NCBI RefSeq assembly: GCF_019112545.1
Contig: NW_025064897.1
Location: forward strand, 122,581-186,580
DNA: 64,000 bases
Source: Guyanagaster necrorhizus
Lineage: Eukaryota; Basidiomycota; Agaricomycetes; Agaricales; Physalacriaceae
Direction of reading: 5' to 3'
Shown here: positions 3,642-55,345 of the stretch, in pieces
Layout: the number at the start of each line of letters is the position of its first letter
Position numbering within the stretch: position 1 is the first letter of the stretch
Position numbers and translations under genes: made by a program
The notes under the pieces: model-generated
Told to the model about the DNA's origin: nothing
What the model saw: only the letters and a program-made list of their open reading frames with translations
Database searches by the model: none

Positions 3642-4156
3642 TATTACGATTTTTCCCATTTTCTTTCTTTTTTCTTTTCTTTTCTCTCAGAAATGACCCC
3701 TATCTTTGCTTAGTCAGAGTGTTTGACCAGCACTTAGAACTATGAGAATGCTTAGCTCAGCAGCCCAGTCGGTCACTCTCCTATCACAATGCTATGTGCT
3801 GTGAAGGGAGAGACAATGCCCCTTTTGTCCCTAAATTACAGTGCAGCAACAGCAGCACAACAGCTTTTGTGGAGAGCCTGGCAACAGCAGGGGTAACAGC
3901 TCCATGACAGACAATATCTTTTGTGAAACATTTATTTATAGCACAATAACAGAACAGTATTTAAGTAGCTTAGTTCTTGCTGTAACACCCCAGTCTTGAA
4001 CTAAAGTTTTACTTCACCATCTTATCTCAAGCAAACTGCAATGCCTTGACAACACAACACTAGTCACACACAAATGGACTCTGACAGTATAACCTGAAGT
4101 GTGAGGTTCTGTCAGTTTATCACATGTCTCTAGTCATGTGGAATTTGGGCTTAACA
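3642..4156 (+). repeat. Family-1 3' LTR (515 bp)
   Basis: Starts TATTACGATTTTT (family consensus TGTTACAATTTTT, first CpA/TpG lost) right after the purine-rich GGAGAGGGTAA and ends GGGCTTAACA. It contains the family landmarks CCCCTAT..TTGCTTAGTCAGAG, a TTTAAGTAG TATA-like box and TTTATCACATGT. It is the 3' LTR of the pol at 160-3604. It is longer and more diverged than the 435-bp LTRs of element B, so it belongs to a different subfamily. The sequence on its right is family-2 internal DNA, which shows nesting. Confidence 0.85.
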
Positions 4157-4430
4157 CTCCCCTTGCCATTCCAAATGGCTCTTCACAGCCTCCATGTATT
4201 CTTTCTCTATGGCTTGCTATTCTAGATGAAACAATTCCTTAGCCTCTTCAGAGCTGTCAGGAGTGGACCCCCTTACCAGAAGCTTAAGAGTGCATGAGCA
4301 ATGATATAGGTGATGATAGAGGTTTCAGATCAAGCTGTAAAACTCTCACAGCCACCAACAATCTTCCATGTGGCCCCACTGGCCATTAGGATCTGTGCTC
4401 TTGAGAGCAAGAATACTAAAGGAGGGATAC
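4157..4430 (-). pseudogene. Fragment of family-2 antisense gene plus polypurine tract
   Basis: On the minus strand this matches the N-terminal part of the antisense coiled-coil gene of element C (49080-49300), including the FHLEW-like start of the coiled coil. The start codon and several codons are lost. The last 15 bases before the LTR (CTAAAGGAGGGATAC) are the family-2 polypurine tract. The rest of the gene was separated by insertion of the family-1 element on the left. Confidence 0.7.
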
Positions 4431-11972: not shown

Positions 11973-13371
11973 GGTAATGGCTAAGTGACTAGGAGAGGCA
12001 AATGAGGAATGAACTCTCAAACACCAACATCTAACCACTTAATACACAATCACCAAATACAGTTGAGGTTGGTTGTTTTGAGTACAATAGAAGCACTCTT
12101 ACAGTCTTAAGTAAAATCAAAGAAACAGTTAATAAAGACAGTTATTCAACTCTATCTTGCTTTTAAAGATGCAATACTCATGAGAGTAGTTTATAGCAAT
12201 GTTTAAGTATAATTAAGACTTAGAATCAATGCAAAATTGCGCTCCAAATCAACTTAGAATATTCTGAAATCCAATGAACTCTAAAACCCAAATACTAAGT
12301 CTATCAAGCACTTAGACTTGACTAGCTGCACTCTTGGCTGGCTAGCAGTCCTCAAAACCAAAGAACTTGTATTCTGATGCTGAAACCCTTATAGTTTAGA
12401 ATCCAAATTAATCCAAAACCCAAAATGCAGTTATCATTCCAGTCCAATCCTCTCTAAATGATAAAGCAACTTAAATAAATCACTAAGTCAAAGCAGAACT
12501 CAAAATCCATTGTCTCAGGGACTAGCAACAGTGGGCTAAAAGGCCTGAATGTGGGGATGAGTCTCTTGCTTGCTATTTCCCCCCTATTCCCTTCTTTTAT
12601 ACATCAACAACAGGTATAGAATCTATAAATAAAGCATTCAAAATAATATTTCTCCTGTTTAAAGCAGAATCACACCATTATTCCAGAATAGTGGCACTCC
12701 TGGACTCCTCTAGGCTTGCCCAGATCCACCTGGCCACTGCATGGCTTTATTTTAAGCCTATAGTGCCTGTGAGTACCTAACTCCTTTCTGTCTATCCAGA
12801 GTTTTAATCCTCTGAGTTATTCTTAGTAGCTTGATTGATCAGGCCTGGCCAGGCCTGGTCAACTGGTCCTATTCACTCTATTCCTCTTAATTCTAAGTCT
12901 CTTAGGTCACCTGATACCTAGAAAATTTGGACTTAGGCATTTGAGTCAAAACTCAGAGTGCTAGCCACAGATCATTGGATCTCTCTTCTTACTGCTCCTG
13001 GATGATGCTATCTTTACTCAATACTCCACAACTGGCTATGGTATTATGCTCCTAGCTGTCTTAGAATATACTTGTCTTAGTGGCATGTAGAATTGGCCTC
13101 ATTTGAGGTACTATTTCTAAGTCCAACTTAGACTTAATATTTCTCAAGGTATAGTGCAGAACTTTTCTAAGTTCAAATCTGACTTAGGATTTTTATCCTT
13201 AGGCTATATTATTTTACAAAGTCTCTTTTGGACTTAGTATTGGTGACTAGCATGACTATCAGCTCAGAGCCTCAGCCATAGTTCTCTACTGGCTAATGAT
13301 CCTCAGTTACTAGTATATTCTAGTGTGTTATACAGAATTCACAAATTATAGGGCTGGACATGTACTCTGCA
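11973..13371. mobile_element. Unclassified 1.4-kb insertion (U)
   Basis: Begins TGGTAATGGCTAAGTGAC and ends ACATGTACTCTGCA. No long open reading frame, no terminal inverted repeat and no poly-A were seen. AT-rich with many CTAAGTC/GACTTAG motifs. It separates family-1 pol sequence from family-2 sequence, and its last 541 bp recur inverted at 7261-7801. It could be a long solo LTR (TG...CA ends) or a non-autonomous element. The class is not recognisable from sequence alone. Confidence 0.5.
12831..13371. repeat. Inverted repeat arm r (541 bp)
   Basis: Reverse complement of 7261-7801, forming the last part of insertion U. The two arms lie about 5 kb apart in opposite orientation and enclose the family-1 LTR, gag and pol start. 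Homology ends sharply at GCTTGATTGATCAGG on the inner side. Confidence 0.8.
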
Positions 13372-14459
13372 CTACTGATCACCTCATTTGTGGTAACACT
13401 CTTGTTGAATGAACAAGTGGTTTTCTTGATCTTGCAGTGAGCACAAGTCTATCCTCAACTAGTGCCTTTGGTTACTGATCATGCATAACACCATGTGCCA
13501 TCTTGATGACAGCACACATAACTTCCTGAAAACAAAAGCTAAATCAAACCATGCAAGAAAATCAAGACACTTACTTTCACCATCCAACAACTCTTTATCC
13601 TTCACTGGCCCTGCAACTTCTAACTTCACCTGCTTTTTGAGACTAGCAATCATCTCTGTCCCACTGCCATTCACTACACTCCTCAATCTGAACTTACATT
13701 TATAGCTCTTCTCTGCTGGACCTGCTGCCCTCCTCTTCCCCTCTCACACTCTCTTTCTTCTCTCTAAGATCTCCTTGGATTCTTCCAACTCATCATCTCT
13801 CTTGGTTCTCTTGTCCTGCTCATCATTGGACTCTGGAGACATACAGCCAGTCACCCTCTTGAAGTGAAAACCAGGGCCAGAACCAAACTATTCTGCCAGC
13901 ACTTGATGCAGCCAAAAATCAATGGCCTCCATGAGAGTCATTTGCAACTCATCCTCTATAACTATCCCCTCCTACCCTACCTTCAAGGTCTCAGCCCTTG
14001 CTGTAGCCTCTGTGGCCTCCCTCTCCTCAGCCTCCCTCTGAGCTACCTCTCTCAAAGCTTTCTCTGCCTCCTTCACTCACCTCTCTGCCATCTGCCAAAC
14101 CTCCTCTCTTTTCTTCTCCAACTCCTCTTGCTGCTTCTTTCTCTGTGCCTTCCAGACCACATGATCCACTCAGACCTTCTCTTCTCTCTCCTGCTCCCTT
14201 TTCTACTCTGAGTGGACTTCTATGGCCTCCACATACTCTTCCTCCATGGTTTGCTATTTCAGATAAAATAATTCTTTAGTCTCTTCAAAGCCATCAAAGG
14301 TGGGTTCCCTCACCAAAGGCTCAGGAGTGCATGAGCAATAATATATAGTGAGAGGCAATATAGTTGCAAAAGTTTAGGCAATAGTGGTAGTATCTGATCA
14401 AGTTGCAAAATTTCCCACAGCTATCAACAATCTTCCATGTGGCCCCACTGGCCATCAAG
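13372..14459 (-). pseudogene. Family-2 antisense gene, decayed copy
   Basis: On the minus strand this follows the antisense gene of element C: start region ATGGCCAGTGGG near 14456, coiled-coil region (14300-13900), basic/acidic middle with a VVNGSGTE block (about 13680), the intron position (GTAAGTGTCTTG near 13575) and part of the zinc-cluster motif (CAHCKIKKTTC near 13420). Cut at 13372 by insertion U. Many codons are now stops. Confidence 0.7.
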
Positions 14460-29889: not shown

Positions 29890-30381
29890 TGTTAGGAACA
29901 TGCCAATCGAGTGGGCTTGAGTGTACGCGCGGAGTCCGGCGGAGTGCGTGGGCATTGACGAAGCTATTGGCAACGTCACCCTTGAGTCGGAGCCCAAGGA
30001 TCTGGATGGACAGAATGGAGTTCTGTCAGAGAAGTGAACAGGAGTATCCTTCAGAGCGGAATCCATCAGATGAGATAGGGAGGAGTGAGTACGAAGTGTA
30101 GATGGCTTATCCAAGTTGATATTCGAACTGAGTAGCTACGATGATGTACATGACTTTATATACTAATGGTAGCTAATTCCGAGTCGGGTTCCATTGGGTT
30201 CCGGTGTCGGTATTCGTTACCGAGTTCGGGGTCTAGATATTACAATGTGAAATACGGATGTGAAATGATACTGGTGAAATGAAATTAGTAGGTAATGGAA
30301 AGCGGTCGGAGTCTGGTGGGTGGTGTGATTGGATTCGCAGTTGGTTGAGGTGACACAGAGGCCGGTGGCATGTGCATAACA
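29890..30381 (-). repeat. Family-2 3' LTR of element D (492 bp)
   Basis: Plus-strand ends TGTTAGGAACATGCC and TGTGCATAACA. About 40 by-eye differences from the partner LTR at 37056-37547, mostly transitions but with about four transversions. At two of those transversion sites this LTR agrees with the separate LTR at 1-159 rather than with its own partner. Confidence 0.9.
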
Positions 30382-30394
30382 GTATCCCCCTCTT
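30382..30394 (-). promoter_or_regulatory. Family-2 polypurine tract of element D
   Basis: Plus-strand GTATCCCCCTCTT, read on the minus strand as a purine run immediately before the 3' LTR. The accessory gene on the plus strand starts within about 50 bp of it, so promoter signals for that gene would have to overlap this tract or the LTR. Confidence 0.5.
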
Positions 30395-30432
30395 AGCATT
30401 CTTGCCCTCAAGAGCGCAGATCCCGATGGCCG

Positions 30433-31329
30433 GTGGGGCCACATGGAAGATTGTTGGTGGAACAGTTTGGTCCTGGCCCCGGTCTTCGCTTCAAGAAGGT
30501 GACTCGCCTTATGCCTCCGGAATCCAATGATGAACAGGACAAGAGGACTGAGGGAGATGATGAGTCCGAGGAATCCGAGGGGACTCTGGAGGGGAGGAAG
30601 AGGGTGTGGGAGGGGAAGAGAAAGGCAGTGGGTCCGGCGGAGAAAGGCCGTAAATGCAAGTTCAGATCGAGGAGCGTAGTGGATGGCAGTGGGACAGAGG
30701 TGGTTGTTAGCCCCAAAAAGTGGGCAAAGTTGGAAGTGGCGGGACCAGTGGGGGGCGAGGAATTGTTAGATGGTGAAAGTAAGTGTCTTGGTTTTCTTTC
30801 ATGGCTCAACTTGGCTTTTTTGTTTTTAGGGAGTTGTGTGTGCTGTCGTCAAGATGGTGCCCAGTGTTATGCATGCCTGGTAACCGAAGGCACCGGTCGA
30901 GGGCAGACTTGCTCTCGCTGCAAGATCAAGAAAACTGCCTGTTCATTCAACAAGGGGGTCACCGTGAGCAAGGTGATCAGCAGTGTGGAGGTCTCTGCCA
31001 GTCTCCACCAACTTTCAAAATTGATACGCAAGTTGATGCGTCGTGTGGATGAGTTAGCGAATGAGGTGGCGGATGTTCGTGGTACTGTGGCAGGTCTTCA
31101 AGATGACTACAGTTCTGATGATATGTCGTCTCCTTCGGAGCTGTTTTCAGAGTCCGAGGTGGAGGCCTGGAAGAAGGCCTGACTGATTTTCAAGGATGAG
31201 AGAGATCAGGAGGTGGAGGATCTTTGGGAGGCGCTGTTGAAGGGGCTGGATGAGGATATAGAGGAGTTGAAGGAGTGGGGGGAGAGTTCGGGTTCCGGTG
31301 CAGGCCTATCAGGTTCTGCTTCTTTATAA
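30433..31329 (+). pseudogene. Antisense accessory gene of element D, coiled coil deleted
   Basis: Same gene as in element C but lying on + because D is inverted. Compared with C it jumps from the start region (about 30455) straight to the GPGLRFKKVTR block, losing roughly 190 codons that include the whole coiled coil. The remainder is well kept: basic/acidic middle, intron with GTAAGT at 30779 and TTTTTAG ending at 30829 (51 bp), zinc-cluster-like cysteines (30837-30965) and a C-terminal leucine-rich segment. TGA at 31180-31182 is followed by 48 open codons to TAA at 31327-31329, as in C. The frame that opens at 30433 begins with a GTG codon, so no good ATG start is left. Confidence 0.75.
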
Positions 31330-33670
31330 ATATTTTGTACAAAATGTATATAGAAAAGGGCGTCGGATGTTGGTGGTGGAAAAAAAAATGTACATGCAAA
31401 AAAAATTTTTTGACTTTGAAAGTGTAGGAAAGGTGATCGATTGGTGGTAATTAGTGGTTAGAATTGAAATGGTAAGGTGGGGCGATGGTGGTGTCCAGAG
31501 TAGCACTGTATTAGGAATGGGATGTTTGAATAACTTTGGATAAGGGTCCTGGTTTGTCTGGGTATCGGTGGTGGAATTCTTTGATAAATTCATCGGCGGA
31601 GAACTTGGAGGCCGGTAACCAAGCAAATTCTTCATTGGTACCTTCGTATCCTAGCCACTGGATTTTGTACAGCAGTGGGCAGCGGAACCGGCGGTCCAGT
31701 TTAGAGTCAAGGATTTGGGCTATTTCGAAATGTTCTTCTCCATCAACTTCGACTGGAGGTGGTGGTGGTTGGATTCGGTTGGGAATGGTGTTTTCTTCTA
31801 TGGGTTCCAATTGTGACACATGGAAGACGGGGTGAATGGACCGGAGGTCCAGCGGAAGCCTCAGGGTAAAGGAGTGGGTACCAGGTTGGGCTATGATTTC
31901 GAAAGGACCAAGGTATTTCTCCGAGAATTTTCTGGTCGGGCGGGTGGTTTTGATATGTTTGGAGCTGAGGTAGACCTTGTCTCCCACTGTGAATGGAGGT
32001 GCCAGAATCTAGTGCTTGTCTGCTTGGGTCTTGTAGCGAGACTGGGCTTCAGAAATTTCATCCTTCAGTAATTGATGGAGTTCATCAAGGTTGACCGTGA
32101 AATCTCGGGCCCGGGCAGAGGCGATATCCCTTTCAGAGTGAACGGTGATGTTGGGGTGGTAACCCTTGTTAGCGAAGAATGGGGAAATTCCGGTGGACGC
32201 GTTAGGGGCATTATTGTAGGCGAATTCAGCAATGGGTAAGAGGGTGTCCCAGTTGTCCTGCTGGTAGGAGCAGTAGATGCGGATGTATTGTTCCAGAGTT
32301 TGGTTTGCTCGTTCAGTTTGGCCGTCGGCCTCCAGATGATAACCAGAGGTAAGATGGAGTTCCATATCAAGAGCCATGGCTAAGGCGCGAGTAAATTGGG
32401 AGACGAATTTGGAGCTGCGGTCAGATGTGATGTGACTGGATACCCTATGTTTGGAGAATACGTGGATAAGAAAAAGTTGGGTGAGCTCCACGGAGTTGAT
32501 GGTGTCATGAGTGAGAATGAAGATGGCTTGCTTGCTAGCTCGGTCTATGACTACTAAGATGGCGGTGAATCCATTGGAGTCCGGTAGTTGTTCAATGAAG
32601 TCCATAGAAATGGAATCCCATGGCTGTTCGGGAACTGGCAGAGGTTTCAGTAACCCATAGGGGCGGTGTCTGGGTGCCTTGTTGCGCCCACAAACTGTGC
32701 AGGACTTAACATAGTGTCAGACATATTCATGCATCTTTGGCCAGGTGTAGTTCCGCCGGACTAGTTCTAATGTCCAGTTTTGACCAAAGTGACCTGCCAA
32801 GATGTGGTCATGATTGTTCTGTATTATACGGAGATAGAGATTGTCAGAGTCTGAGACGTGGATGCGGCCTTCGAAGTGAAGGATGTTGGATTCATCAATG
32901 GACCATTGAGAGGGAGAGGATTCGAAAGCGGCCTTGGCCTGGTGGAGGCTGTCGGAGGACATAGCATCAGAGGATTGTGCTTGTCTGATATCAGTGTGGA
33001 GTTTGTCGATATCCATGATGGCACTAGCCCATAGGGTGGAGCCTTTAAGATAGGTTGCTCAGAGTGACGTGGAGAGTTGTTCTTAGGTGAACACGGGTCG
33101 GAAATTGTGCAGGTTGATTTGGGCATATTGGCTATCCCCCTCTTTAGGGTAGACGTCCTATCGTCTAGTGAGCGCATCCGGTTTCCCACCAAGTTTTCCA
33201 GGGTGGAACCGGATTACTAGGTTGAACTGGGATAGGTATTCAGACCAGCGGACCTGTCGGCGGATTAGAATCTTAGTGGTGGCGAAGTATTCAAGGTTCT
33301 TGTGGTCTGTTACAACATCGATGGAGTCCACGAAGCCTTCGAGATAATGCCGCCAATGTTTAAAGGCTTCAAAAATGGCTAGAAGCTCTTTGTCATGGAT
33401 GTCATAGTTGAGTTCAGCATTGTGGAGGCTCCAGGAGCAGAAAGCGATGGGGTGAATTTCGCCATCTTCAAGATAGATGGAGAGGATAGCTGCAATTGCA
33501 TAGTCGGAGGCATCGGTTTCCACCACTATCTTTCGATCAGGGACCCAGTGGGTAAGGATGGAGGCGTGTGTAAAGGCCTGTTTCAACTCATTGAAGGTGG
33601 CCAAGCATTTGTCGTCAAATTTCCATGGGGTTCCCTTGCGGGTGAGTCGTGTAAGGGGGATGACGATGTC

Positions 33671-34065
33671 NNNNNNNNNNNNNNNNNNNNNNNNNNNNNN
33701 NNNNNNNNNNNNNNNNNNNNNNNNNNNNNNNNNNNNNNNNNNNNNNNNNNNNNNNNNNNNNNNNNNNNNNNNNNNNNNNNNNNNNNNNNNNNNNNNNNNN
33801 NNNNNNNNNNNNNNNNNNNNNNNNNNNNNNNNNNNNNNNNNNNNNNNNNNNNNNNNNNNNNNNNNNNNNNNNNNNNNNNNNNNNNNNNNNNNNNNNNNNN
33901 NNNNNNNNNNNNNNNNNNNNNNNNNNNNNNNNNNNNNNNNNNNNNNNNNNNNNNNNNNNNNNNNNNNNNNNNNNNNNNNNNNNNNNNNNNNNNNNNNNNN
34001 NNNNNNNNNNNNNNNNNNNNNNNNNNNNNNNNNNNNNNNNNNNNNNNNNNNNNNNNNNNNNNNNN
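33671..34065. other. Assembly gap (395 N)
   Basis: Run of N inside RT/RNase H of element D. The same segment in element C spans 45237-45518, about 282 bp, so the gap length here is probably not the true size unless D carries extra sequence. Confidence 0.95.
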
Positions 34066-34904
34066 GTCGAGGTAGACTACTACTGATATGTCGAGCATGT
34101 CTGAGAATATATCGTTCACAAATCATTGGAATGCCGCTGGAGCATTTGTGAGGCCAAAGGGCATGACGTGCCATTCGAAGGAACCGTAACAGATCCGGAA
34201 GGCTGTTTTCCATTCATTCCCCTTAGCTATGCGAACGAGATGGTAGGCATGCCGAAGGTTGAGCTTAGTGTAGATGCACGCAGAGCGGGCAGAGTCGAGG
34301 AGATCAGAAATGAGGGGGAGAGGATAGTGACCTTTCTTGGAGATTTTGTTTAGGCCATGGTAGTCAACGCAAAGTCGAAGTTCACCGGTCTTTTTCTTGA
34401 TGAATAGAACTGGAGCCCCATGTGAAAAGTGGGACAGAGTAATAAACCCATTGCACAGATTATCATCAATAAACTCTCATAGAGCTTTGAGTTCAGATTC
34501 TGAGAGAGAATAAATAGGTCCAAGTGGTGGGGATGTCCCTTCCTCAAGGTTGATTTTGAGGTCGTATGGTCTGTGTTCAGGTAGTTTTTCGGAGAGGGTA
34601 TCGCTGAAGACATCTGCAAAATCGTGGTACTCTACTGGCACTGATAAAAGATCTGCCGGTTCCGCGGATGCGGCTTTGGCTCCAATATTAGGCAAAGAAG
34701 GCTGCAGTGTGAACTGTTGGGCACCTTCTTCTGCACTGGCTTGGATGAATGCAGCAGCGGATATGATGGAGATCTTTGGGTGTGCTTTCCTAGTAAAAGA
34801 TTCTGAGGGAGGATAGGAGTAGATGGGTTCATATGGGAATGAAGTCCGCTGGTTATCCGATGTGGACTTGGAATGGGGTGAAGCCCCGGAAGTTGGACTG
34901 ATAG

Positions 34905-35050
34905 AGTCCGATGGGCACAGAAGTCCCGAAATTGAGCTGGAAGGCTCAGAAAGGGGTGGACTGTTGTCCTGTGGGCACGGAAGTCCCGGATTTGAGCTGG
35001 AAGGCTCGGAAAAAAATGGACTGTTGTCCTGTGGGCACGGAAGTCCCTGG
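34905..35050. repeat. 60-bp tandem repeat in Pol spacer of D
   Basis: Two and a half copies of a unit encoding GLPCPQDNSP..SEPSSS between protease and RT, with copies differing by a few bases. The same array is in element C at 44165-44340. Confidence 0.8.
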
Positions 35051-35576
35051 GATGCGGTGGAGGCCACAGAATTGGTTGGAGTGGGATCCTGGTAGCTTGA
35101 ACAGAAAATGATACTGTTCTCAGCCCAGTCAATCAGTGGATTGTAGCGGGAGAGCCAGTTGTATCCTAGGACAAGATTGCAAGACAAATCCAGAGGAGTG
35201 ACATAGAAGTCGATGGGGAAGGTGTCTCCGGACAGGAAACAGATGAGGATGGTTGCTATTTGAGATATATGGCTCCCGATGGAGCCATCAAATAATCGAA
35301 GTTGCACACTAGAGATGGTTTTAATGGGGATTTCATTGGCAGTTACATACTTAGTGTCAACAAAGCAGTGGCTAGAGCCAGAATCAATAAGGGCAAGAAA
35401 ATGTAGGATGATACAAGTTGGGGAACCATCGGGTTCCATAGTAGTCGGCAATTCTGCTGAGAGGGGAATGTGGAAGGAGTGATTGGAAAGGGATGTTGCA
35501 TTGAGAGTGATGACCTCTAGTGTGTGAATACAGTCGATGCAACCCCAAACTTGCACGGAGGGAACAGGGTTGCTTC

Positions 35577-37016
35577 TTAGTTTTCCGACTCTGTCGGAGC
35601 CAGTTCCACAGGAGCGGTGTCGACCTCTGCTGCACGCCCCTTGGCAGAGGCTGCTGCCTTCCGCTTGTTGCAGTCCTCGGTCTTGTGTTTGGCTCCACAG
35701 AACATGCAAAGGTTGTTCTGGCACCAGCGGTCTTTTTCTTCCTGGGTAAGATGGCCATCTTTGCCTAGCTTGTTGGCATAGAGCTTAGGGGCGGTAGATT
35801 TCGGTGTGGAGCTGGAGTCCGAGGGAGATGTGTTAGACCCCTTGGATTTGGGGTTGGAAAATTTATTGTCCTGGTTTTCACAGGCAATTTCGGTCTTCCA
35901 GGTCCAGTAGCGAGCATCAAGTTCTTGGGCAAGGAAGCACATATCACGAAGGTTGTTTGGCTTCCCATGGTGTGCCATGTCATCCTTGATACGGGTGCAG
36001 AGGCCACGGTAAAAGGCATGGCGGAGGGAGTTATCTCCGTACCCAATTTGTGAAGCATACTGGTTGAATTGGACCATATACTTCATGATCCGATCACCAT
36101 CGTGCATCCGAAGGTGTTCTAATGCATCTTCAGCATCTCCGATAGCATCAAAGAGGCCGAAGTTGCTACAAAGCTCATCTAAGAAGGCTGCATAGGAGAA
36201 TTGCCAGGCTGGTGGATTCTGCAGATTGGGGTTAAGAATGTCTGGTTCGAACCAGTTGAGCGCGGTGCCGGCCAAGAATGAAATGGCGTAGTTAACTTTG
36301 TTAGCGTCTGTTGCAAACGCGGTAGGTCTGTCGTTGAAGTTCAACTGAAGGGAGACAATGAAAGCCTTCAGTTTGCGAGGGTCAGAGCCATCAAATGGTT
36401 CTGGTTCCTTGACCTTGGTATGGACAGTGGCTGGTTTAGAGTTGTTGAGAGAGGTGGAGACTCCTCATAACAGGTTCATGAATTCTAGGAACATGTCCTG
36501 CTAGTTTGGATTGTTACTTTCTGTAGGGCCATTGGTGCTGCCTGGGCCATTGGGATCATCTGGTCCTCCTGGTCCACCTGGTCCACCTGGGAAAGGGTTT
36601 GGTGGATTGCCAGCTGGTTCCCATCGGATGGAAGTATGAGTAGGGGTGTCTTCATCTCTGCCCTCTGAGTCTGGGCTGTCTGGATTCCCATGGTTGTTGC
36701 CCAGGGATAAGGGGTCTATTGGGGGGTCGGTTCGGGCGCCATACATCAGGCTGGTCCATCGGGCCCCGTTGGTTGGGATGCTAGTGGCATCGAAAGGGTT
36801 AGGGGAATCGTCGTAATTAGATTGGCGGGCAGTGAAGCTAGAGTGATTGTAGGTTTCCCTACAGGAAGATTGTCCCCCACTGGAGGCTGATCTGAACAGG
36901 CCTGGTTGTTCCTTTGAGGCAGATGCTGGGATGTCTTCCATGGAAAACATGTTTGGATGGGTGGGCTGCCTTTGTTCAGGATCGGTCTCTGTGGGTTCGG
37001 TAAATGTGGTGGACAT
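35577..37016 (-). pseudogene. Family-2 Gag of element D
   Basis: Starts MSTTFTEPTETDPEQRQ at 37016, 40 bp inside the 5' LTR. It has an N-terminal disordered part with a Gly-Pro-rich collagen-like run (36560-36600), a retrotransposon capsid domain (NYAISFLAGTALNWFEPD) at 36344-35980, and a C-terminal knuckle CMFCGAKHKTEDC near 35703-35665. It ends ESEN-TAA. Two transitions make stops (near 36501 and 36467). Compared with element C it is otherwise about the same length, 479 residues. Confidence 0.85.
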
Positions 37017-37055
37017 GATAAAATTTTCGACTCAAGGGTTTGAGTTCGAATATAC

Positions 37056-37547
37056 TGTTAGGAACGTGCCAATCGAGTGGGCTTGAGTGCACGCGTGGAG
37101 TCCGGCGGAGTGCATGGGCATTGACGAAGCTATTGGCAACATCACCCTTGAGTCGGGGCCCAAGGATCTGGATGGACAGAACGGAGTTCTGTCAGAGAAG
37201 TGAACAGGAGTATCCTTCGGAGCGGAATCCAACGGATGAGATAGGGAGGAGTGAGTATGAAGTGTAGATGGCTTATCCAAGTTGATATTCGAACTAAGTA
37301 GTTATGGTGATATACATGGCTTTATATACTAATGGTAGCTAATTCTGAGTCGGGTTCCATTGGATTCCGGTGTGAATATTCGCTACCGAGTTCGGGGTCT
37401 AGGTATTACAATGTGAAATACAGATGTGAAATGATAATGGTGAAATGAAATTAGTAGGTAATGGGAAGCGGCCGGAGTCCAGTGGGTAGTGTGATAGAAT
37501 TCGTGGTTGGTTGAGGTGACATGGAGGCTGGCGGCATGCACGTAACA
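37056..37547 (-). repeat. Family-2 5' LTR of element D (492 bp)
   Basis: Plus-strand ends TGTTAGGAACGTGCC and GCACGTAACA, followed by the GGGTA target duplication. It keeps more CpG than the partner LTR in several places and fewer in others, as expected from independent decay. Confidence 0.9.
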
Positions 37548-41663: not shown

Positions 41664-42155
41664 TGTTACATGTATGCCGCCGGCCTCCGTGTCACCTCAA
41701 CCAACCACGAATTCTATCACGCTACCCACCGGACTCCGGCCACTTCCCATTACCTACTAATTTCATTTCACCATTATCATTTCATATCTGTATTTCACAT
41801 TGTAATACCTAGACCCCGAACTCGGTAGTGAATATTCACACCGGAATCCAATGGAACCCGACTCAGAATTAGCTACCATTAGTATATAAAGCCATGTATA
41901 TCACCATAACTACTTAGTTCGAATATCAACTTGGATAAGCCATCTACACTTCATACTCACTCCTCCCTATCTCATCCGTTGGATTCCGCTCCGAAGGATA
42001 CTCCTGTTCACTTCTCTGACAGAACTCCATTCTGTCCATCCAGATCCTTGGGCCCCGACTCAAGGGTGACGTTGCCAATAGCTTCATCAACGCCCACGCA
42101 CTCTGCTGGACTCCGCACGTGCACTCAAGCCCACTCGATTGGCACGTTCCTAACA
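41664..42155 (+). repeat. Family-2 5' LTR of element C (492 bp)
   Basis: TGTTACATGTATGCC to TTCCTAACA. AGTATATAAAGCCATG in the centre is the likely TATA box of the gag-pol transcript. The leader GTATATTCAAACTCAAACTC follows. No standard tRNA primer site was recognised. Confidence 0.95.
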
Positions 42156-42194
42156 GTATATTCAAACTCAAACTCTTGAGTCAAAAATTTTATC

Positions 42195-43634
42195 ATGTCC
42201 ACCACATTTACCAAACCCACAGAGACCGATCCTGAACAAAGGTAGCCCATCCATCCAAACATGTTTTCCATGGAAGACATCCCGGCATCTGCCTCAAAGG
42301 AACAACCAGGCCTGTTCGGATCAGCCTCCAGTGGGGGACAATCTTTCCATAGGGAAACCTACAATCACTCTAGCTTCACTGCCCACCAACCTAATTACGA
42401 TGATTCCCCTAACTCTTTCGATGCCACCAGCATCCCAACCAACAGGGCCCGATGGGCCAGCCTGATGTATGGCGCCCGAACCGACCCCCCAATAGACCCC
42501 TTATCCCTGGGCAACAACCATGGGAATCCAGACAGCCCAGACTCAGAGGGCAGAGATGAAGACACCCCTACTCATACTCCCATCCGACGGGAACCGGCTG
42601 GCAATCCACCAAACCCTTTCCCAGGTGGACCAGGTGGACCAGGAGGACCAGGTGGTCCCAATGGCCCAGGCAGTGCCGATGGCCCCACAGGAAGTAACAA
42701 TCCAAACCAGCAGGATATGTTCCTAGAATTCATGAACCTGTTACGAGGAGTCTCCACCTCCCTCAACAACCCTAAACCAGCCACTGTCCATACCAAGGTC
42801 AAGGAACCAGAACCATTTGATGGCTCTGACCCTTGCAAACTAAAGGCTTTCATTGTCTCCCTTCAGTTGAACTTCAACGACAGACCTACCACGTTTGCAA
42901 CAGATGCTAACAAGGTTAACTACGCCATTTCATTCCTGGCTGGCACCGTGCTCAACTGGTTCGAACCAGACATTCTTAACCCCAATCCGCGGAATTCACC
43001 AGCCTGGCAATTCTCCTACGCAGCCTTCTTAGATGAGCTTCATAGCAACTTCAGCCCCTTTGATGCTATCAGAGATGCTGAAGATGCATTAGAACACCTT
43101 CGGATGCGCGATGGTGATTGGATCATGAAGTATATGGTCCAATTCAACCAGTATGCTTCACAAATTGAGTACGGAGATAACTCCCTCCACCATGCCTTTT
43201 ACCATGGCCTCTGCACCCGTATCAAGGATGACATGGCACACCATGGGAAGCCAAACAACCTTCATGATATGCGCTTCCTTGCCCAAGAACTTGATGCTCG
43301 CTACTGGACCTGGAAGACCGAAATTGCCCGTGAAAACCAGGACAATAAATTCTCCAACCCCAAATCCAAGGGGTCTAACACATCTCCCTCGGACTCCAGC
43401 TCCACACCGAAATCTACCGCCCCTAAGCTCTATGCCAACAAGCTAGGCAAAGATGGCCATCTTACCCAGGAAGAAAAAGACCGCTGGTGCCAGAACAACC
43501 TTTGCATGTTCTGTGGAGCCAAACACAAGACCGAGGACTGCAACAAGCGGAAGGCAGCAGCCTCCGCCAAGGAGCATGCAGCAGAGGTCAACACCACTCC
43601 CATGGAACTGGCTCCGACAGAGTCAGAAAACTAA
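42195..43634 (+). pseudogene. Family-2 Gag of element C
   Basis: ATG at 42195 (MSTTFTKPTETDPEQR) is in frame with the long reading frame from 42261 but separated from it by a TAG at 42231-42233, where copy D has CAG. It holds a disordered N-terminus, a Gly-Pro run (PGGPGGPGGPGGPNGPG, 42618-42670), a capsid domain (VNYAISFLAGTVLNWFEPD, about 42915-43290) and a knuckle CMFCGAKHKTEDC (43504-43542) with only three residues between the second Cys and the His. It ends ESEN-TAA. From 42261 the frame is open, so a shortened 457-residue Gag starting at the second Met (MFSMEDIP) is possible. Confidence 0.85.
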
Positions 43635-44164
43635 GAAGCAACCCTGTTCCCTCCGTGCAAGTTCAGGGTTGCATCGACTGTATTCACACACCAGAGGTCA
43701 TCACTCTCAATGCAACATCCCTTTCCAATCACTCCTTCCACATTCCCCTCTCAGCAGAATTGCCGACTACTATGGAACCCGATGGTTCCCCAACTTGTAT
43801 CATCCTACATTTTCTTGCCCTTATTGATTCTGGCTCTAGCCACTGCTTTGTTGACACTAAGTATGTAACTGCCAATGAAATCCCCATTAAAACCATCTCT
43901 AGTATGCAACTTCGATTATTTGATGGCTCCATCGGGAGCCATATATCTCAAATAGCAACCATCCCCATCTGTTTCCCATCCAGAGACACCTTCCCCATCG
44001 ACTTCTATGTCACTCCTCTGGATTTGTCTTGCAATCTTGTCCTAGGATACAACTGGCTCTCCCGCTACAATCCACTGATTCACTGGGCTGAGAACAGTAT
44101 CATTTTCTGTTCAAGCTACCAGAATCCCACTCCAACCAATTCTGTGGCCTCCACCGCATCCCAG

Positions 44165-44340
44165 GGACTTCCGTGCCCACAGAACAACAGTCCATTTTTT
44201 TCCGAGCCTTCCAGCTCAAATCCAGGACTTCCGTGCCCACAGGACAACAGTCCACCCCTTTCTGAGCCTTCCAGCTCAATTTCGGGACTTCTGTGCCCAT
44301 CGGACTCTATCAGTCCAACTTCCGGGGCTTCACCCCATTC
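44165..44340. repeat. 60-bp tandem repeat in Pol spacer of C
   Basis: Units beginning at about 44165, 44225 and 44285 encode GLPCPQ.NSP..SEPSSS. The third copy is diverged. The array sits between protease and RT and abuts the assembly gap. Confidence 0.85.
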
Positions 44341-44354
44341 CAAGTCCACATCGG

Positions 44355-44764
44355 NNNNNNNNNNNNNNNNNNNNNNNNNNNNNNNNNNNNNNNNNNNNNN
44401 NNNNNNNNNNNNNNNNNNNNNNNNNNNNNNNNNNNNNNNNNNNNNNNNNNNNNNNNNNNNNNNNNNNNNNNNNNNNNNNNNNNNNNNNNNNNNNNNNNNN
44501 NNNNNNNNNNNNNNNNNNNNNNNNNNNNNNNNNNNNNNNNNNNNNNNNNNNNNNNNNNNNNNNNNNNNNNNNNNNNNNNNNNNNNNNNNNNNNNNNNNNN
44601 NNNNNNNNNNNNNNNNNNNNNNNNNNNNNNNNNNNNNNNNNNNNNNNNNNNNNNNNNNNNNNNNNNNNNNNNNNNNNNNNNNNNNNNNNNNNNNNNNNNN
44701 NNNNNNNNNNNNNNNNNNNNNNNNNNNNNNNNNNNNNNNNNNNNNNNNNNNNNNNNNNNNNNNN
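44355..44764. other. Assembly gap (410 N)
   Basis: Lies between the protease spacer and RT of element C. The matching stretch of element D is 34538-34856, about 319 bp, so the stated gap size is likely an estimate. Confidence 0.95.
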
Positions 44765-47700
44765 GACATCCCCACCACTTGGACCTATTTATTCTCTCTC
44801 AGAATCTGAACTCAAAGCTCTACGAGAGTTTATTGATGATAATCTGTGCAATGGGTTCATTACTCTGTCCCACTTTTCACACGGGGCTCCAGTTCTATTC
44901 ATCAAGAAAAAGACCGGTGAACTTCGACTTTGCGTTGACTACCATGGCCTAAACAAAATCTCCAAGAAAGATCACTATCCTCTCCCTCTCATTTCTGATC
45001 TCCTCGACTCTGCCCGCTCTGCGCGCATCTACACCAAGCTCGACCTTCGGCATGCCTACCATCTCGTTCACATAGCTAAGGGGGACGAATGGAAAACAGC
45101 CTTCCGGACCCGTTACGGTTCCTTTGAATAGCACGTCATGCCCTTTGGCCTCACAAATGCTCCAGCGGCATTCCAACGATTTGTGAACGATATATTCTCA
45201 GACATGCTCGACATATCAGTAGTAGTCTACCTCGACAACATCCTCATATATTCCGACAACCCGGAAGATCACCAGAAACATGTTCATGAGGTCCTACGCA
45301 GGCTTAGAGCTAATAGACTCTACTGCAAAGGTTCTAAATGCAAATTCAACCGGGACTCCATAGAGTACCTAGGCTACATCCTATCACCTGAAGGACTTCG
45401 CATGTCTGAAGAAAAAGTCAAGGCGATTGTTGACTGGCCGGTGCCGTGAAAAGTCAAGGACATCCAATCCTTCCTTGGCTTTGCCAACTTCTACCGTCGC
45501 TTCATACATGGATATAGCGACATCGTCATCCCCCTTACACGACTCACCCGCAAGGGAACCCCATGGAAATTTGACGACAAATGCTTGGCCACCTTCAATG
45601 AGTTGAAACAGGCCTTTACACACGCCCCCATCCTTACCCACTGAGTCCCCGATCGAAAGATAGTGGTGGAAACCGATGCCTCCGACTATGCAATTGCAGC
45701 TATCCTCTCCATCTATCTTGAAGATGGCGAAATTCACCCCATCGCTTTCTGCTCCTGGAGCCTCCACAATGCTGAACTCAACTATGACATCCATGACAAA
45801 GAGCTTCTAGCCATTTTTGAAGCCTTTAAACATTGGCAGCACTATCTCGAAGGCTCCGCGGACTCCATCGATGTCGTAACAGACCACAAGAACCTTGAAT
45901 ACTTCGCCACCACTAAGATTCTAATCCGCCGACAGGTCCGCTGGTCTGAATACCTATCCCAGTTCAACCTAGTAATCCGGTTCCACCCTGGAAAACTTGG
46001 TGGGAAACCGGATGCGCTCACTAGACGATAGGATGTCTACCCTAAAGAGGGGGATAGCCAATATGCCCAAATCAACCTGCACAATTTCCGACCCGTGTTC
46101 ACCCAAGAACAACTCTCCACATCACTCTGAGCAACCTATCTTAAAGGCTCCACCCTACGGGCTAGTGCCATCATGGATATCGACAAACTCCACACTGATA
46201 TCAGACAAGCACAATCCTCTGATGCTATGTCCTCCAACAGCCTCCGCCAGGCCAAGGCCGCCTCTGAATCCTCTCCCTCTCAATGGTCCATTGATGAATC
46301 CAACATCCTTCGCTTCGAAGGCCACATCCACATCCCGGACTCTGACGATCTCCGTCTCTGTATACTACAGAACAATCATGACCACATCTTGGCAGGTCAC
46401 TTTGGTCAAAACCGGACATTAGAACTAGTCCAGCAGAACTACACCTGGCCAAAGATGCGTGAATATGGCCGACACTATGTTAAGTCCTGCACAGTTTGTG
46501 AGCGCAACAAGGCACCCAGACACCGCCTCTATGGGTTACTGAAACCTCTGCCAGTTCCCGAACGGCCATGGGATTCCACTTCCATGGACTTCATTGAACA
46601 ACTACCGGACTCCAATGGATTCACCGCCATCTTAGTAGTCATAGACCGAGCTAGCAAGCAAGCCATCTTCATTCCCACTCATAACACCATCAACTCCGTG
46701 GAGCTCGCCCAACTTTTCCTTATCTATGTATTCTTCAAACATGGGGTACCCAGTCACATCACATCTGACCGCAGCTCCAAATTCGTCTCCCAATTTACTC
46801 GCGCCTTAGCCGTGGCTCTTGACATGGAACTCTACCTTACCTCTGGTTATCATCCGGAGGCCGACGGCCAAACTGAACGAGCAAACCAAACTCTGGAACA
46901 ATACATCCGCATCTACTGCTCCTATCAGCAGGACAACTGGGACACCCTCTTACCCATTGCTGAATTCGCCTACAATAATGCCCCTAACATGTCCACCGGA
47001 ATTTCCCCATTCTTCACTAACAAGGGTTACCACCCCAACATCACTGTTCACCCTGAAAGGGACATCGCCTCCACCCGGGCCCGTGATTTCACAGTCAACC
47101 TTGACAAACTCCATCAATTACTGAAGGATGAAATTTCCGAAGCTCAGTCTCGCTACAAGACCCAAGCAGACAAACATCGGATTCCGGCACCTCCGTTCAC
47201 AGTAGAGGACAAGGCCTACCTCAGCTCCAAACATATCAAAACCACCCGCCCAACCAGAAAATTTTCGGAGAAATACCTTGGTCCTTTCGAAATCATAGCC
47301 CAACCTGGTACCCACTCCTTTACCCTGAGTCTTCTGCCGGATCTCCAGTCCATTCACCCCATCTTCCATGTGTCACAATTGGAACCCATAGAAGAAAACA
47401 CCATTCCTAATCGAATCCAACCACCATCGCCTCCAGTCGAAGTCGACGGAGAAGAACATTTCGAAATAGCCCAAATCCTCGACTCTAAACTGGACCGCCA
47501 GTTCCGCTGCCCACTGCTGTACAAAATCCAGTGGCTAGGATACGAAGGTACCAATGAAGAGTTTGCTTAGTTACCAGCCTCTGAGTTCTCCACCGACGAA
47601 TTTATTGAAGAATTCCATCACTGATACCCAGACAAACCAGGACCCTTGTCCAAAGTCATTCAAACATCCTATTCCTAATACAATACTACTCTGGACACCA

Positions 47701-47822
47701 CCAGCCCCCACCTTACCATTTCAATCACTTTTACACTTTCAAATCGAAATCTTGTATTTACATTTCTTTTCTCCACTACCAACATCCGACGCCCTTTCTA
47801 TATACATTTCATACAAAAGATA

Positions 47823-49190
47823 TTACAAAGAAGCGGAATCCGAAGGACCCACACCGGAACCCAAACTCTCCCCCTGCTCCTTCAACTCCTCTATATCCTT
47901 GTCCAGCCCCTTCAACAGCGCCTCCCAAAGATCCTCCACCTCCTGATCCCTCTCATCCTTGAAAATCAGTCAGGCCTTCTTCCAGGCCTCCACCTCGGAC
48001 TCCAAAAACAGCTCCGAAGGAGACGACATATCATCAGAACCGTAGTCGTCTTGAAGACCTGCCACAGTACCACGAACATCCGCCACCTCGTTCGCCAACT
48101 CATCCACACGACGCATCAACTTGCGTATCAATTTTGAAAGTTGGTGGAGACTGGCAGAGACCTCCACACTGCTGATCACCTTGCTCATGGTGACCCTCTT
48201 GTTGAATGAACAGGCGGTTTTCTTGATCTTGCAGCGAGAGCAAGTCTGCCCTCGACCGGTGCCTTCGGTTACCAGGCATGCATAACACTGGGCACCATCT
48301 TGACGACAGCACACACAACTCCCTAAAAACAAAAAAGCTAAGTTGAGCCATGAAAGAAAACCAAGACACTTACTTTCACCATCTAACAATTCCTCGCCCC
48401 CCACTGGTCCCACCACTTCCAACTTTGCCCACTTTTTGGGGCTAACAACCACCTCTGTCCCACTGCCATCCACTACGCTCCTCGACCTGAACTTGCATTT
48501 ACGGCCTTTCTCCGCCGGACCCACTGCCTTTCTCTTCCCCTCCCACACCCTCTTCCTCCCCTCCAGAGTCCCCTCGGATTCCTCGGACTCATCATCTCCC
48601 TCAGTCCCCTTGTCCTGTTCATCATTGGATTCCGGAGGTGTAGGGCGAGTCACCTTCTTGAAGCGAAGACCAGGGCCAGGACCATACCATTCCGCCAAAA
48701 CTTGACGCAGCCAAAAATCAGTGGCCTCCGCGGGGGTCATCAGCAACCCATCCTCCATAACCATCCCCTCTGGCTCTACCTCCTCAGCCTCAGCCCTCAC
48801 CGCCGCCTCCGTGGCCTCTCTCTCCGCAGCCTCCCTCTCCGTGGCCTCCCTCTCCTCAGCCGCCCTCCGAGCCGCCTCCCTCAATGCCTCCTCTGCCTCC
48901 TTAGCCCACCTCTCCGTGGCTTGCCAAACCTCCTCCCTCTTCCTCTCCAATTCCTCCTTCTGCTCCTTTTTCCGTGCCTCCCAGGCCACATGGTCCGCTC
49001 GGACCTTTTCCTCCTGCTCTTGCTCCCTTTGCCATTCCACATGACTCTCCACGGCCTCCGTGTATTCTTCCTCCGCGGCCTCCCATTCTAGATGAAACAA
49101 TTCTTTGGCCTCTTCAGGGCCATCGGGGGTGGATCCCCTCACCAGAGGCTCGGGAGTGCATGAGTGACGATACGTGGTGAGTGATGACAT
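47823..49190 (-). CDS. Antisense accessory gene of family-2 element C: coiled coil + zinc-cluster-like protein
   Basis: Transcribed against gag-pol from next to the 3' LTR. Likely ATG at 49190 (MSSLTTYRHSCTPEPLV). Exon 1 is 49190-48374, the intron 48373-48323 (51 bp, GTAAGT...TTTTTAG), exon 2 48322-47970, giving about 389 residues to TGA. Domains: FHLEWEAAEEEY then about 110 residues of Glu/Lys/Ala/Arg coiled coil, an ETD-like helical block before GPGLRFKKVTR, an acidic patch, a basic nuclear-targeting-like stretch (KGRKCKFRSR), and, across the splice, cysteines spaced CX2CX6C-X14-CX2CX6C (CVCCRQDGAQC and CSRCKIKKTAC), reminiscent of fungal Zn2Cys6 clusters. A heptad-like C-terminus follows. 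TGA (47972-47970) is followed by 48 conserved codons to TAA at 47823. No stop interrupts the main frame although gag and pol are broken. DNA binding or regulation is an inference. Product unknown. Confidence 0.7.
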
Positions 49191-49300
49191 AGGCGATGAT
49201 GGTGGTTTCAGATCAAGATACAAAACTCCCACGGCCACCAACAATCCTCCATGTGGTCCCACCGGCCATCGGGATCAGCGCTCTTGAGGGCAAGAACGCT

Positions 49301-49313
49301 AAAGGGGGGATAC
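49301..49313 (+). promoter_or_regulatory. Family-2 polypurine tract of element C
   Basis: AAAGGGGGGATAC directly before the 3' LTR, conserved in all family-2 copies seen here. Confidence 0.65.
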
Positions 49314-49805
49314 TGTTACGCGCATGCCGCCAGCCTTCGTGTCACCTCAACCAACCACAAATTCTATCACGCTACCCACCGGACTCTGGCCGCTTCCCAT
49401 TACCTACTAATTTCATTTCACCATTATCATTTCACATCTGTATTTCACATTGTAATACCTAGACCCCGAACTCGGTAGCGAATATTCACACCGGAATCCA
49501 ATGGAACCCGACTTGGAATTAGCTACCATTAGTATATAAAGCCATGTATATCACCATAACTACTTAGTTCAAATATCAACTTGGATAAGCCATCTACACT
49601 TCATACTCACTCCTCCCTATCTCATCCGTCGGATTCCACTCCGAAGGATACTCCTGTTCACTTCTCTGACAGAACTCCGTTCTGTCCATCCAGATCCTTG
49701 GGCCCCGACTCAAGGGTGACGTTGCCAATAGCTTCATCAACGCCCATGCACTCCGCCGGACTCCGCACGTGCACTCAAGCCCACTCGATTGGCATGTTCC
49801 TAACA
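49314..49805 (+). repeat. Family-2 3' LTR of element C (492 bp)
   Basis: TGTTACGCGCATGCC to TTCCTAACA, same length as its partner with no indels. On its left it also lies at the 5' side of the antisense gene, so it may carry that gene's promoter. Confidence 0.95.
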
Positions 49806-49810
49806 CTTAT

Positions 49811-54603: not shown

Positions 54604-55345
54604 GTATTCCCCCCTTAGCATTCTTGCTCTCAAGAGCACAGATCCTGATGGCTAGTGGAGAAGCATATGGAAAATTTTTGCATGAGTGTGAGAATTTTGC
54701 AACTTAAACTGCTACCACCACTATCTCCATCAGCTCACTGTACCCTCTGTCATTATCTTTCTCCAATATCTACTATCACATCTTACCAATTGTCCATAAC
54801 CCCAGAGCCCTTTGTGCAGATGCTGATGCTGGATGGTTTCAAGAAAGAGCAAGAAATGTTTCATCTAGAGTGGACTATGGCAGAGGACAAGTATCAGGAG
54901 GCCATAGAGTGGCATTAGGAGTGGAAGGTGGTACAGGTCTGAAAGGATTGCAAAGTAAGAGTGAATGCAAAGTATATGGCTCATGCAGAAAAGGTGCAGG
55001 CATTGAAGAGAAGAAGGAGTCACTCAGATTGGAGCAGGAGCAGAAAGCTATAGAGACAGTGGAAAAGGCTAAAGCTGAGGCAAAGGAGCAGGTGGTGAGA
55101 CAGGGGAGGGAGGCAATGGAGGCCACAGCAAGAGAGAGCCAGAGTGAGGAAGGCATGGTGTCTGAGTTGACACTGGTGGAGGCCATGGAGAGGAGGTGAA
55201 ATGACTTATTGGTGGAGTATGGTGGGAGTATTTATGAGCACCTGCCTACTCCTCATCATCAGACTCTATCTTATAATCTCTCTTCTGCTTGACCCTATGG
55301 ACCTTCTGCCTTTATGCCTGCTATCTATCACACTCATAGATTTCT
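54604..55345 (+). pseudogene. Antisense accessory gene, copy in a minus family-2 fragment
   Basis: On + because its element is minus-oriented. It keeps TPEPFV..DGFKKEQEMFHLEW and the Glu/Lys/Ala coiled coil (54655-54918, frame change, then 54960-55199) and a VEAMERR block equivalent to the region after the coiled coil. The zinc-cluster part is missing: the sequence turns into an opposite-strand copy near 55345. The C-terminus is therefore lost. Confidence 0.65.

What the first reader, a model, noticed from the sequence alone, without database searches (positions are those of the whole stretch)
47823..49190. Retrotransposon carrying a spliced antisense gene for a coiled-coil, zinc-cluster-like protein
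In element C the region between pol and the 3' LTR encodes, on the opposite strand, a protein of about 389 residues with a long coiled coil, a basic stretch and cysteines spaced CX2CX6C-X14-CX2CX6C, close to fungal Zn2Cys6 clusters. The cysteine array is completed by removing a 51-bp intron with perfect GTAAGT/TTTTTAG ends; the same intron ends occur in element D, and the donor in the 13372-14459 copy. Seen directly: at least six copies (4157, 13372, 30433, 47823, 54604, 55346), always antisense at the same place. In C the frame is free of stops while gag and pol have several. An intron on the minus strand shows it is meant to be transcribed against the element. Inference: it could regulate the element, bind its DNA, counter silencing, or be a captured host gene.
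Basis: partly seen in the sequence, partly recalled or inferred. Interest (0 to 1): 0.88.

Follow-up and report, generated by a model that had tools for sequence, protein, structure and literature searches.

The report
Spliced antisense gene in fungal retrotransposon
A family of jumping genes in a mushroom-type fungus carries an extra, intron-containing gene written backwards on the opposite strand, and comparison of many copies shows that both the protein and its splice sites have been kept by selection, so the element very probably makes this protein, most likely a DNA- or chromatin-binding regulator of itself.

Summary
Element C (41664-49805, target duplication CTTAT) is a Ty3/gypsy element with an antisense gene between pol and its 3' LTR: exon 1 49190-48374, a 51-nt intron, exon 2 to 47970, 389 aa. 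The genome holds about 100 or more copies; 60 of 91 integrase copies have it antisense downstream, none in sense.

In 45 introns read, GT is kept in 44 and AG in 44; twelve (49 or 52 nt) keep exon 2 in frame only if spliced. Between subfamilies dN/dS is 0.35-0.42 against 0.55-0.59 in neutral shuffles (integrase 0.28-0.33 against 0.49-0.51); within subfamilies it is near neutral. Six cysteines (CX2CX6C-X14-CX2CX6C) are kept in 27-30 of 30 copies, two others in 12; Armillaria has relatives.

So it is a real, selected, presumably spliced accessory gene. The kind is known (plant antisense ORFs, Boty brtn, HTLV HBZ); this family and its conserved intron are new to our searches. Zn2Cys6 membership fails the Pfam cut-off; host capture has no support. 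Transcription and function are untested; a nuclear dimeric regulator of the element is my inference.

The parts
41664..49805 (+). Element C, Ty3/gypsy LTR retrotransposon, TGTTA...TAACA, target duplication CTTAT at 41659-41663 and 49806-49810
   Evidence: Gag, protease, integrase Pfam hits
41664..42155 (+). 5' LTR of C
   Evidence: 95.9% to the 3' LTR
49314..49805 (+). 3' LTR of C
49301..49309 (+). polypurine tract AAAGGGGGG just inside the 3' LTR
   Evidence: sequence
42261..43634 (+). gag ORF (Ty3_capsid / Retrotrans_gag)
43487..44809 (+). protease-containing pol ORF (RVP_2)
44901..45383 (+). reverse transcriptase domain, one stop inside
   Evidence: row C18:167481-167963
46173..47570 (+). 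integrase ORF (H2C2, rve, SH3_Tf2-1) ending within a chromodomain-like stretch (sub-threshold)
48374..49190 (-). antisense gene, exon 1 (817 nt, ATG at 49190)
48323..48373 (-). intron, 51 nt, GTAAGT...TTTTTAG
47970..48322 (-). antisense gene, exon 2 to the stop used in C
47823..47969 (-). stretch homologous to the C-terminal tail read in 17 of 22 copies; only slightly below the neutral null
48777..49115 (-). predicted 113-residue helix (residues 26-138)
   Evidence: AlphaFold2
48477..48560 (-). basic stretch (12 K/R in residues 211-240)
48210..48317 (-). six-cysteine motif CX2CX6C-X14-CX2CX6C
48039..48170 (-). 44-residue helix, high confidence over most of its length, coiled-coil-like
29890..37547 (-). 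Element D, same family, inverted
30447..31329 (+). antisense gene of D, 5' part of exon 1 missing; intron 30779-30829
13353..14361 (-). older copy of the gene next to LTR 14502-14989; 49-nt intron 13526-13574
4142..4321 (-). fragment of the gene next to LTR 4431-4928
54766..55152 (+). very degenerate N-terminal fragment of the gene

Best explanation
It is a genuine accessory gene of a Ty3/gypsy family whose pol ends in a chromodomain-like stretch; it lies between pol and the 3' LTR and is read from the opposite strand. Shown here by comparison: fixed place and orientation, purifying selection on the antisense frame between subfamilies, conserved splice sites, six conserved cysteines followed by a coiled-coil-like helix, and a homologous protein family in Armillaria. 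Inferred: transcription starts in or next to the 3' LTR (the ATG lies about 120 bp from it), the pre-mRNA is spliced, and the protein enters the nucleus by its basic stretch, dimerises through the coiled coil and uses a zinc-cluster-like domain to bind DNA or chromatin, probably to tune expression or silencing of the element's own LTRs. The intron would survive retrotransposition because the sense genomic RNA carries it reversed and cannot splice it out.
For: Fixed position: 60 of 91 integrase copies have the gene antisense within 2.5 kb downstream, 0 in sense. Intron: GT 44 of 45, exact GTAAGT 42 of 45, AG 44 of 45; 12 of 45 introns are 49 or 52 nt; the donor with its flank is the longest invariant stretch (11 bases, the next 10; 19 of 1362 six-base windows are invariant in 28 copies); 62 of 101 tBLASTn rows end at residues 285-320, the intron's place (8 fragment rows of 109 left out). 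Selection: dN/dS 0.424, 0.348 and 0.357 between subfamilies against null 0.587, 0.555 and 0.557, lowest of six frames; with 12 lower-identity copies 0.358 and 0.380 against 0.56, 0 of 40 shuffles reach it; integrase of the same copies 0.327, 0.298, 0.283 against 0.489, 0.505, 0.504. Six motif cysteines 27-30 of 30, two extra ones 12 of 30. 23 relatives, 22 of them named as Armillaria. Gene and integrase distances correlate, r 0.938 in 27 copies.
Against: No RNA data. Within subfamilies dN/dS of the gene is close to the null (0.542 against 0.571; 0.508 against 0.566), while integrase pieces of the same copies are still clearly below theirs (0.437 against 0.515; 0.278 against 0.514): recent constraint on the gene looks weaker than on integrase. 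The intron body diverges no faster than the exons (pairwise identity 0.889 against 0.852 and 0.873), and in the C-type subfamily the intron is stop-free in most copies and in frame, so retention is possible there. Of eight complete 49-nt copies, six have one internal stop even when spliced. Pfam Zn_clus below cut-off. No CGG-type site in the LTR is clearly spared from CpG decay. No PDB fold match. A 17-bp frame-breaking deletion near the start is shared by 5 of 30 copies.
Confidence: 0.57

Rival explanations
1. The antisense RNA, not the protein, matters: it pairs with the sense RNA and feeds RNA silencing; the reading frame is incidental.
For: A review raises dsRNA from antisense transcripts as a possible role (PMC7264820, read in part). 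Antisense position is fixed. Within subfamilies the frame is near neutral.
Against: Between subfamilies constraint follows codons in the antisense frame, the six motif cysteines resist decay while two neighbouring cysteines do not, and the protein family is kept across genera. A pure RNA role needs neither a frame nor a splice site.
Confidence: 0.13
2. The protein is an anti-silencing factor that removes DNA methylation or heterochromatin from its own family, as VANC proteins do for VANDAL elements.
For: LTR CpGs of the family have decayed to TG/CA in a large share of 34 LTRs, which suggests that the copies are methylated; a DNA-binding-like protein in the element would fit.
Against: No specific target motif found; no methylation data; no relation to VANC was tested directly.
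Confidence: 0.2
3. A captured host gene (transduction) carried as cargo, with its intron as a relic.
For: It has an intron, and Armillaria holds many annotated members whose genomic setting I could not read.
Against: Of 29 further loci held with flanks (L010-L038), 28 have integrase DNA of the family beside the gene and the 29th, at a contig end, has the LTR; two copies that looked free-standing lie in elements. No stand-alone gene was seen, though the searches score only the best candidates.
Confidence: 0.1
4. Chance antisense frame in a decayed non-coding spacer.
For: Many copies are decayed, and within subfamilies the frame is near neutral.
Against: Frame-specific constraint between subfamilies against shuffles, exon indels mostly multiples of three (exceptions a 17-bp deletion in 5 copies, single bases in 2, and truncations), splice-site invariance, cross-genus conservation.
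Confidence: 0.02

Closest known systems
[quoted passage not shown]
   Same: Same place, same orientation, in most copies, conservation like other element proteins; Grande protein nuclear, TRP28 probably DNA-binding (PMC7264820, parts 1-2 of 3; PMC11963269, abstract and passages)
   Different: No sequence comparison with those proteins was made; here a six-cysteine domain and a conserved intron ('intron' does not occur in the main text of either paper); basidiomycete host
brtn, antisense gene of Boty-like elements in Botrytis
   Same: Fungal Ty3/gypsy element with an added antisense gene; its pol also ends in a chromodomain (PMC4227169 passages; PMC8365987 passages)
   Different: Ascomycete; sequence of brtn not seen here (Zhao 2011 known only by citation), so homology is untested
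HBZ and relatives of HTLV
   Same: Antisense, spliced, next to the 3' LTR; regulatory protein with a leucine zipper (PMC3185765, passages)
   Different: HBZ is a bZIP with its first exon in the 3' LTR; here no bZIP hit, ATG lies outside the LTR, intron is mid-gene
Fungal Zn2Cys6 transcription factors (Gal4 type, PF00172)
   Same: Six cysteines in two CX2CX6C halves followed by a linker and coiled coil (Gal4 layout recalled); one Armillaria relative is labelled Zn(2)-C6 by UniRef (P0005)
   Different: X14 between halves; below the Pfam cut-off in every test
VANC anti-silencing proteins of VANDAL elements (PMC5735166, abstract)
   Same: Element-encoded; chromatin role proposed for both
   Different: VANDALs are DNA transposons (recalled); no sequence comparison was made

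Membership tests
antisense accessory ORF (aORF-3R) of LTR retrotransposons | lies between pol and 3' LTR, antisense to gag-pol | tested here: met
antisense accessory ORF (aORF-3R) of LTR retrotransposons | present in most copies of the family | tested here: met
   60 of 91 integrase copies, a lower bound because both lists are capped
antisense accessory ORF (aORF-3R) of LTR retrotransposons | conserved like the element's other proteins | tested here: inconclusive
   between subfamilies observed/null dN/dS 0.63-0.72 against 0.56-0.67 for integrase; within subfamilies 0.90-0.95 against 0.54-0.85
antisense accessory ORF (aORF-3R) of LTR retrotransposons | antisense transcription | not testable with these tools
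   no RNA data; conserved splice sites are indirect evidence
Zn2Cys6 (PF00172) | score over the curated Pfam cut-off (21 bits) | tested here: not met
   not listed for whole proteins; exact 44-residue pieces hit in 4 of 10, 9.8-14.0 bits
Zn2Cys6 (PF00172) | six conserved cysteines, CX2CX6C twice | tested here: met
   linker of 14 is longer than in the usual pattern (recalled)
Zn2Cys6 (PF00172) | binds two zinc ions and CGG-type DNA | not testable with these tools
   AlphaFold model of the region is low confidence
HBZ-type antisense gene | spliced antisense transcript | tested here: inconclusive
   comparative evidence only
HBZ-type antisense gene | bZIP domain | tested here: not met
   no bZIP in the Pfam scan of P0001 up to E 1
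captured host gene | related stand-alone gene in the host genome | tested here: inconclusive
   none seen; searches score only the best candidates and context was read for part of the copies only
VANC-like anti-silencing | lowers methylation of its own family | not testable with these tools
   no methylation data

The most novel reading that the evidence does not exclude
The element encodes its own Gal4-like dimeric DNA-binding regulator on the antisense strand, from a spliced transcript driven from the 3' LTR, and uses it in trans to switch its LTRs or lift their silencing: a fungal counterpart of HBZ that arose independently, with splicing as a strand-specific mark that lets only the antisense reading make the protein in a large part of the family.
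Probability: 0.3. Interest if true: 0.8.

Novelty: new variant of a known kind. Interest (0 to 1): 0.6.

Why it matters
Antisense extra genes of LTR elements are known, mostly in plants, but their role is open. Here splice sites kept across dozens of copies, often around an intron whose length breaks the frame unless it is removed, give sequence-level evidence that the antisense strand is, or was, transcribed, spliced and translated. That makes a long-standing question testable in fungi, where expression, deletion and methylation can be followed.

Tried and rejected
Chance ORF: rejected by frame-specific constraint and splice-site conservation. Stand-alone host copies: C9:939274-940017 and C10:1093666-1094115 looked like candidates but lie in elements with LTR and pol matches. 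CGG-type target sites in the LTR: at the sites listed (CG in over 25% of sequences) CG is kept in 26-74% of 34 LTRs, none clearly spared for a motif. A swapped order of the two zinc half-sites was suggested but not upheld with exact strings: 2 of the 4 Zn_clus hits align in normal order, halves alone give no Zn_clus hit. Structure: exon 2 model mean pLDDT 66, cysteine part below 50, no PDB match; exon 1 model mean pLDDT 69. Sequence search of the PDB gave no significant hit; the best are coiled-coil chains, E 0.03 and 0.1. NCBIfam gave only weak coiled-coil-like or unrelated hits. IMG/VR scan found no relative. First protein search was swamped by candidates and gave one hit; a region search with P0001 gave none; one with the Armillaria protein gave 23. 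'Fewer stops in the gene than in pol' was not used: the copies were ranked by similarity to the gene, which favours intact ones.

Dropped rows: one search used 8, 10 and 4 copies of three subfamilies and left out L013, L015, L017, L019, L020, L021 (frame-breaking changes), the truncated D copy (L026) and the contig-end copy L038; L027 and L029, which also carry frame-breaking indels, stayed in (codons are read by C's columns). One search left out L026 and L038; the correlation left out L015, L030 and L038; one search left out C from the 51-nt set; one search counted 101 of 109 rows.

Full report
WHAT IS THERE. Element C runs from 41664 to 49805 with 492-bp LTRs ending TGTTA...TAACA, 95.9% alike, and a 5-bp target duplication CTTAT on both sides. 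It has gag, protease, RT and integrase in Ty3/gypsy order; the integrase ORF ends within a chromodomain-like, sub-threshold stretch. The target duplication puts the gene inside the element. Between the integrase ORF (end 47570) and the polypurine tract (49301-49309) a minus-strand gene starts at 49190, has a 51-nt intron 48373-48323 and stops at 47970, giving 389 residues after splicing.

COPIES. A six-frame search of the same genome (53.3 Mb, 109 contigs, unnamed) listed 109 rows from 102 scored candidates, a lower bound because only the best candidates are scored. A search with integrase listed 91 copies; 60 have the antisense gene within 2.5 kb downstream, 0 have it in sense, and 1 has a listed gene upstream. 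The 31 others have no listed gene, which is not proof of absence. In the window a profile finds five copies: C, D, 13353-14361, 4142-4321 and a degenerate one at 54766-55152; nothing at 55346. Of 29 further loci held with flanks (L010-L038), 28 have integrase DNA of the family beside the gene and 26 a near-complete LTR, two a partial one, one (L025) none found. Two copies that looked free-standing lie in elements. Over 27 copies, gene and integrase distances correlate (r 0.938, 0 of 999 permutations reach it), so the gene descends with its element.

THE INTRON. I read the intron in 45 copies: 30, 14, and the 13.5-kb window copy. GT is kept in 44 (exception L054), exact GTAAGT in 42, AG in 44 (exception L011; L024 counted as kept, its AG is shifted by two bases in the alignment). 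Lengths are 48, 49, 51, 52 and 54 nt (53 in L024). Twelve copies have 49 or 52 nt. In eight of the nine 49-nt copies an unspliced reading meets a stop 25-63 codons after exon 1 (the ninth, L038, is cut by its contig end), while the spliced reading enters the frame of the cysteine domain; it is open to the terminal stop in L032 and L035, and the other six have one internal stop each. Of 101 protein-match rows (8 fragment rows left out) 62 end at residues 285-320, where the intron lies. The donor with its flank (AAAGTAAGTGT, 11 bases) is the longest invariant stretch of the gene in 28 copies, the next being 10; 19 of 1362 six-base windows are invariant. Against: the intron body is not more variable than the exons, and in C and its nearest kin the intron could be retained without breaking the frame. 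An Armillaria ostoyae gene model (39% identity over 220 columns) aligns across the junction with a gap of 17 residues, the length of the intron; whether that model was spliced by its annotators I could not see.

SELECTION. With a codon count (Nei-Gojobori) and a null that reshuffles each pair's differences among sites of the same base and CpG context, dN/dS between subfamilies is 0.424, 0.348 and 0.357 against 0.587, 0.555 and 0.557 (20 shuffles each, standard deviation 0.009). The antisense frame is the lowest of six frames in all three comparisons; the next lowest is a sense-strand frame (0.48-0.59). With 12 copies from the low-identity end of the lists it is 0.358 and 0.380 against 0.56 (0 of 40 shuffles). 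Integrase pieces of the same copies give 0.327, 0.298 and 0.283 against 0.489, 0.505 and 0.504. So between subfamilies the gene is held nearly as firmly as integrase. Within subfamilies it is near the null (0.542 against 0.571; 0.508 against 0.566), whereas integrase is still below its null (0.437 against 0.515; 0.278 against 0.514; integrase pieces of the 49-nt set are short). Neutral decay after insertion explains part of this, but the contrast with integrase suggests weaker recent constraint on the gene. By part, observed over null is lowest in codons 321-389 (coiled coil, 0.56) and the cysteine domain (0.60), 0.70 and 0.64 in the two parts of exon 1, and 0.95 in the tail that C lacks, which is still below all 10 shuffles. 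Caveats: pairs are not independent, and copies were found by similarity to C's protein or its relative, which could lower dN; the low-identity set and the run without C reduce but do not remove this.

THE PROTEIN. Predicted architecture: a 113-residue helix (26-138), a short helix, an acidic low-confidence stretch, a basic stretch, the six-cysteine motif, and a 44-residue helix with pLDDT 87-98 over its main blocks. The six motif cysteines are kept in 27-30 of 30 copies; two further cysteines of C, at exon-2 offsets 3 and 14, in only 12 of 30. This internal control singles out CX2CX6C-X14-CX2CX6C. In the 23 relatives the six positions are cysteine in 16-21, most misses being gaps. Of these, 22 are named as A. 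ostoyae, A. solidipes or A. borealis and one is unnamed; they are the only relatives found, several per species on different contigs, and their genomic setting could not be read. Pfam Zn_clus appears for 4 of 10 exact cysteine pieces at 9.8-14.0 bits, below the cut-off of 21, and not for whole proteins; UniRef labels one Armillaria member Zn(2)-C6. I therefore call it zinc-cluster-like, not a member.

HOW IT MIGHT WORK. Shown: gene, frame, splice sites and constraint. Inferred: antisense promoter in or near the 3' LTR; nuclear, dimeric, DNA- or chromatin-binding protein acting on the family. The CpG decay of LTRs hints at methylation, so an anti-silencing role is open. A silencing role of the RNA alone does not explain codon-level constraint between subfamilies.

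WHAT IS KNOWN. Antisense additional ORFs between pol and the 3' LTR are a known class in plants, and Boty of Botrytis is cited as a fungal case (PMC7264820, parts 1-2 of 3). Retand clusters carry antisense TRP28 ORFs in 97% of cases, probably DNA-binding (PMC11963269, abstract and passages). HTLV-1 makes spliced antisense HBZ from the 3' LTR (PMC3185765, passages). Abstracts only were seen of PMC5735166 and PMC8156140, passages of PMC8365987, PMC4227169 and PMC5408684. The word 'intron' does not occur in the main text of the two plant papers. Ten paper searches were made; no title or abstract start in their listings showed this family or a conserved intron in an antisense retrotransposon gene of a basidiomycete. 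Most subscription papers are not held.

VERDICT. A real, selected, presumably spliced antisense accessory gene: a new variant of a known kind, with an unusually clear sequence case for antisense expression. Interest 0.6. On checking, the within-subfamily contrast with integrase, left out at first, was added and the confidence lowered from 0.60 to 0.57.

Noticed in passing
LTRs of the family, e.g. window 49314-49805 and loci L010-L048: CpG sites have decayed to TG/CA in a large share of 34 LTR copies, which suggests CpG methylation of the elements.
   Followed up: partly
codons 2-7 of the gene in L013, L015, L017, L020, L021: Five of 30 copies share a 17-bp deletion between short direct repeats just after the start codon, which shifts the frame; they may use another start or be dead.
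   Followed up: no
window 50951-53629 (+): A second gypsy family with RT, integrase, SH3_Tf2-1 and a clear chromodomain lies next to element C.
   Followed up: no
window 58410-61642 (+): ORFs with a sub-threshold LIM hit and a RhoGAP domain, probably a host gene.
   Followed up: no
Armillaria proteins P0002-P0024: The longer relatives carry roughly 160-200 extra C-terminal residues with an acidic end that the window family lacks.
   Followed up: partly
window intron 48323-48373 and homologues of 51 nt: In this subfamily the intron is in frame and stop-free in most copies and would encode a hydrophobic segment if retained; alternative retention is possible.
   Followed up: no
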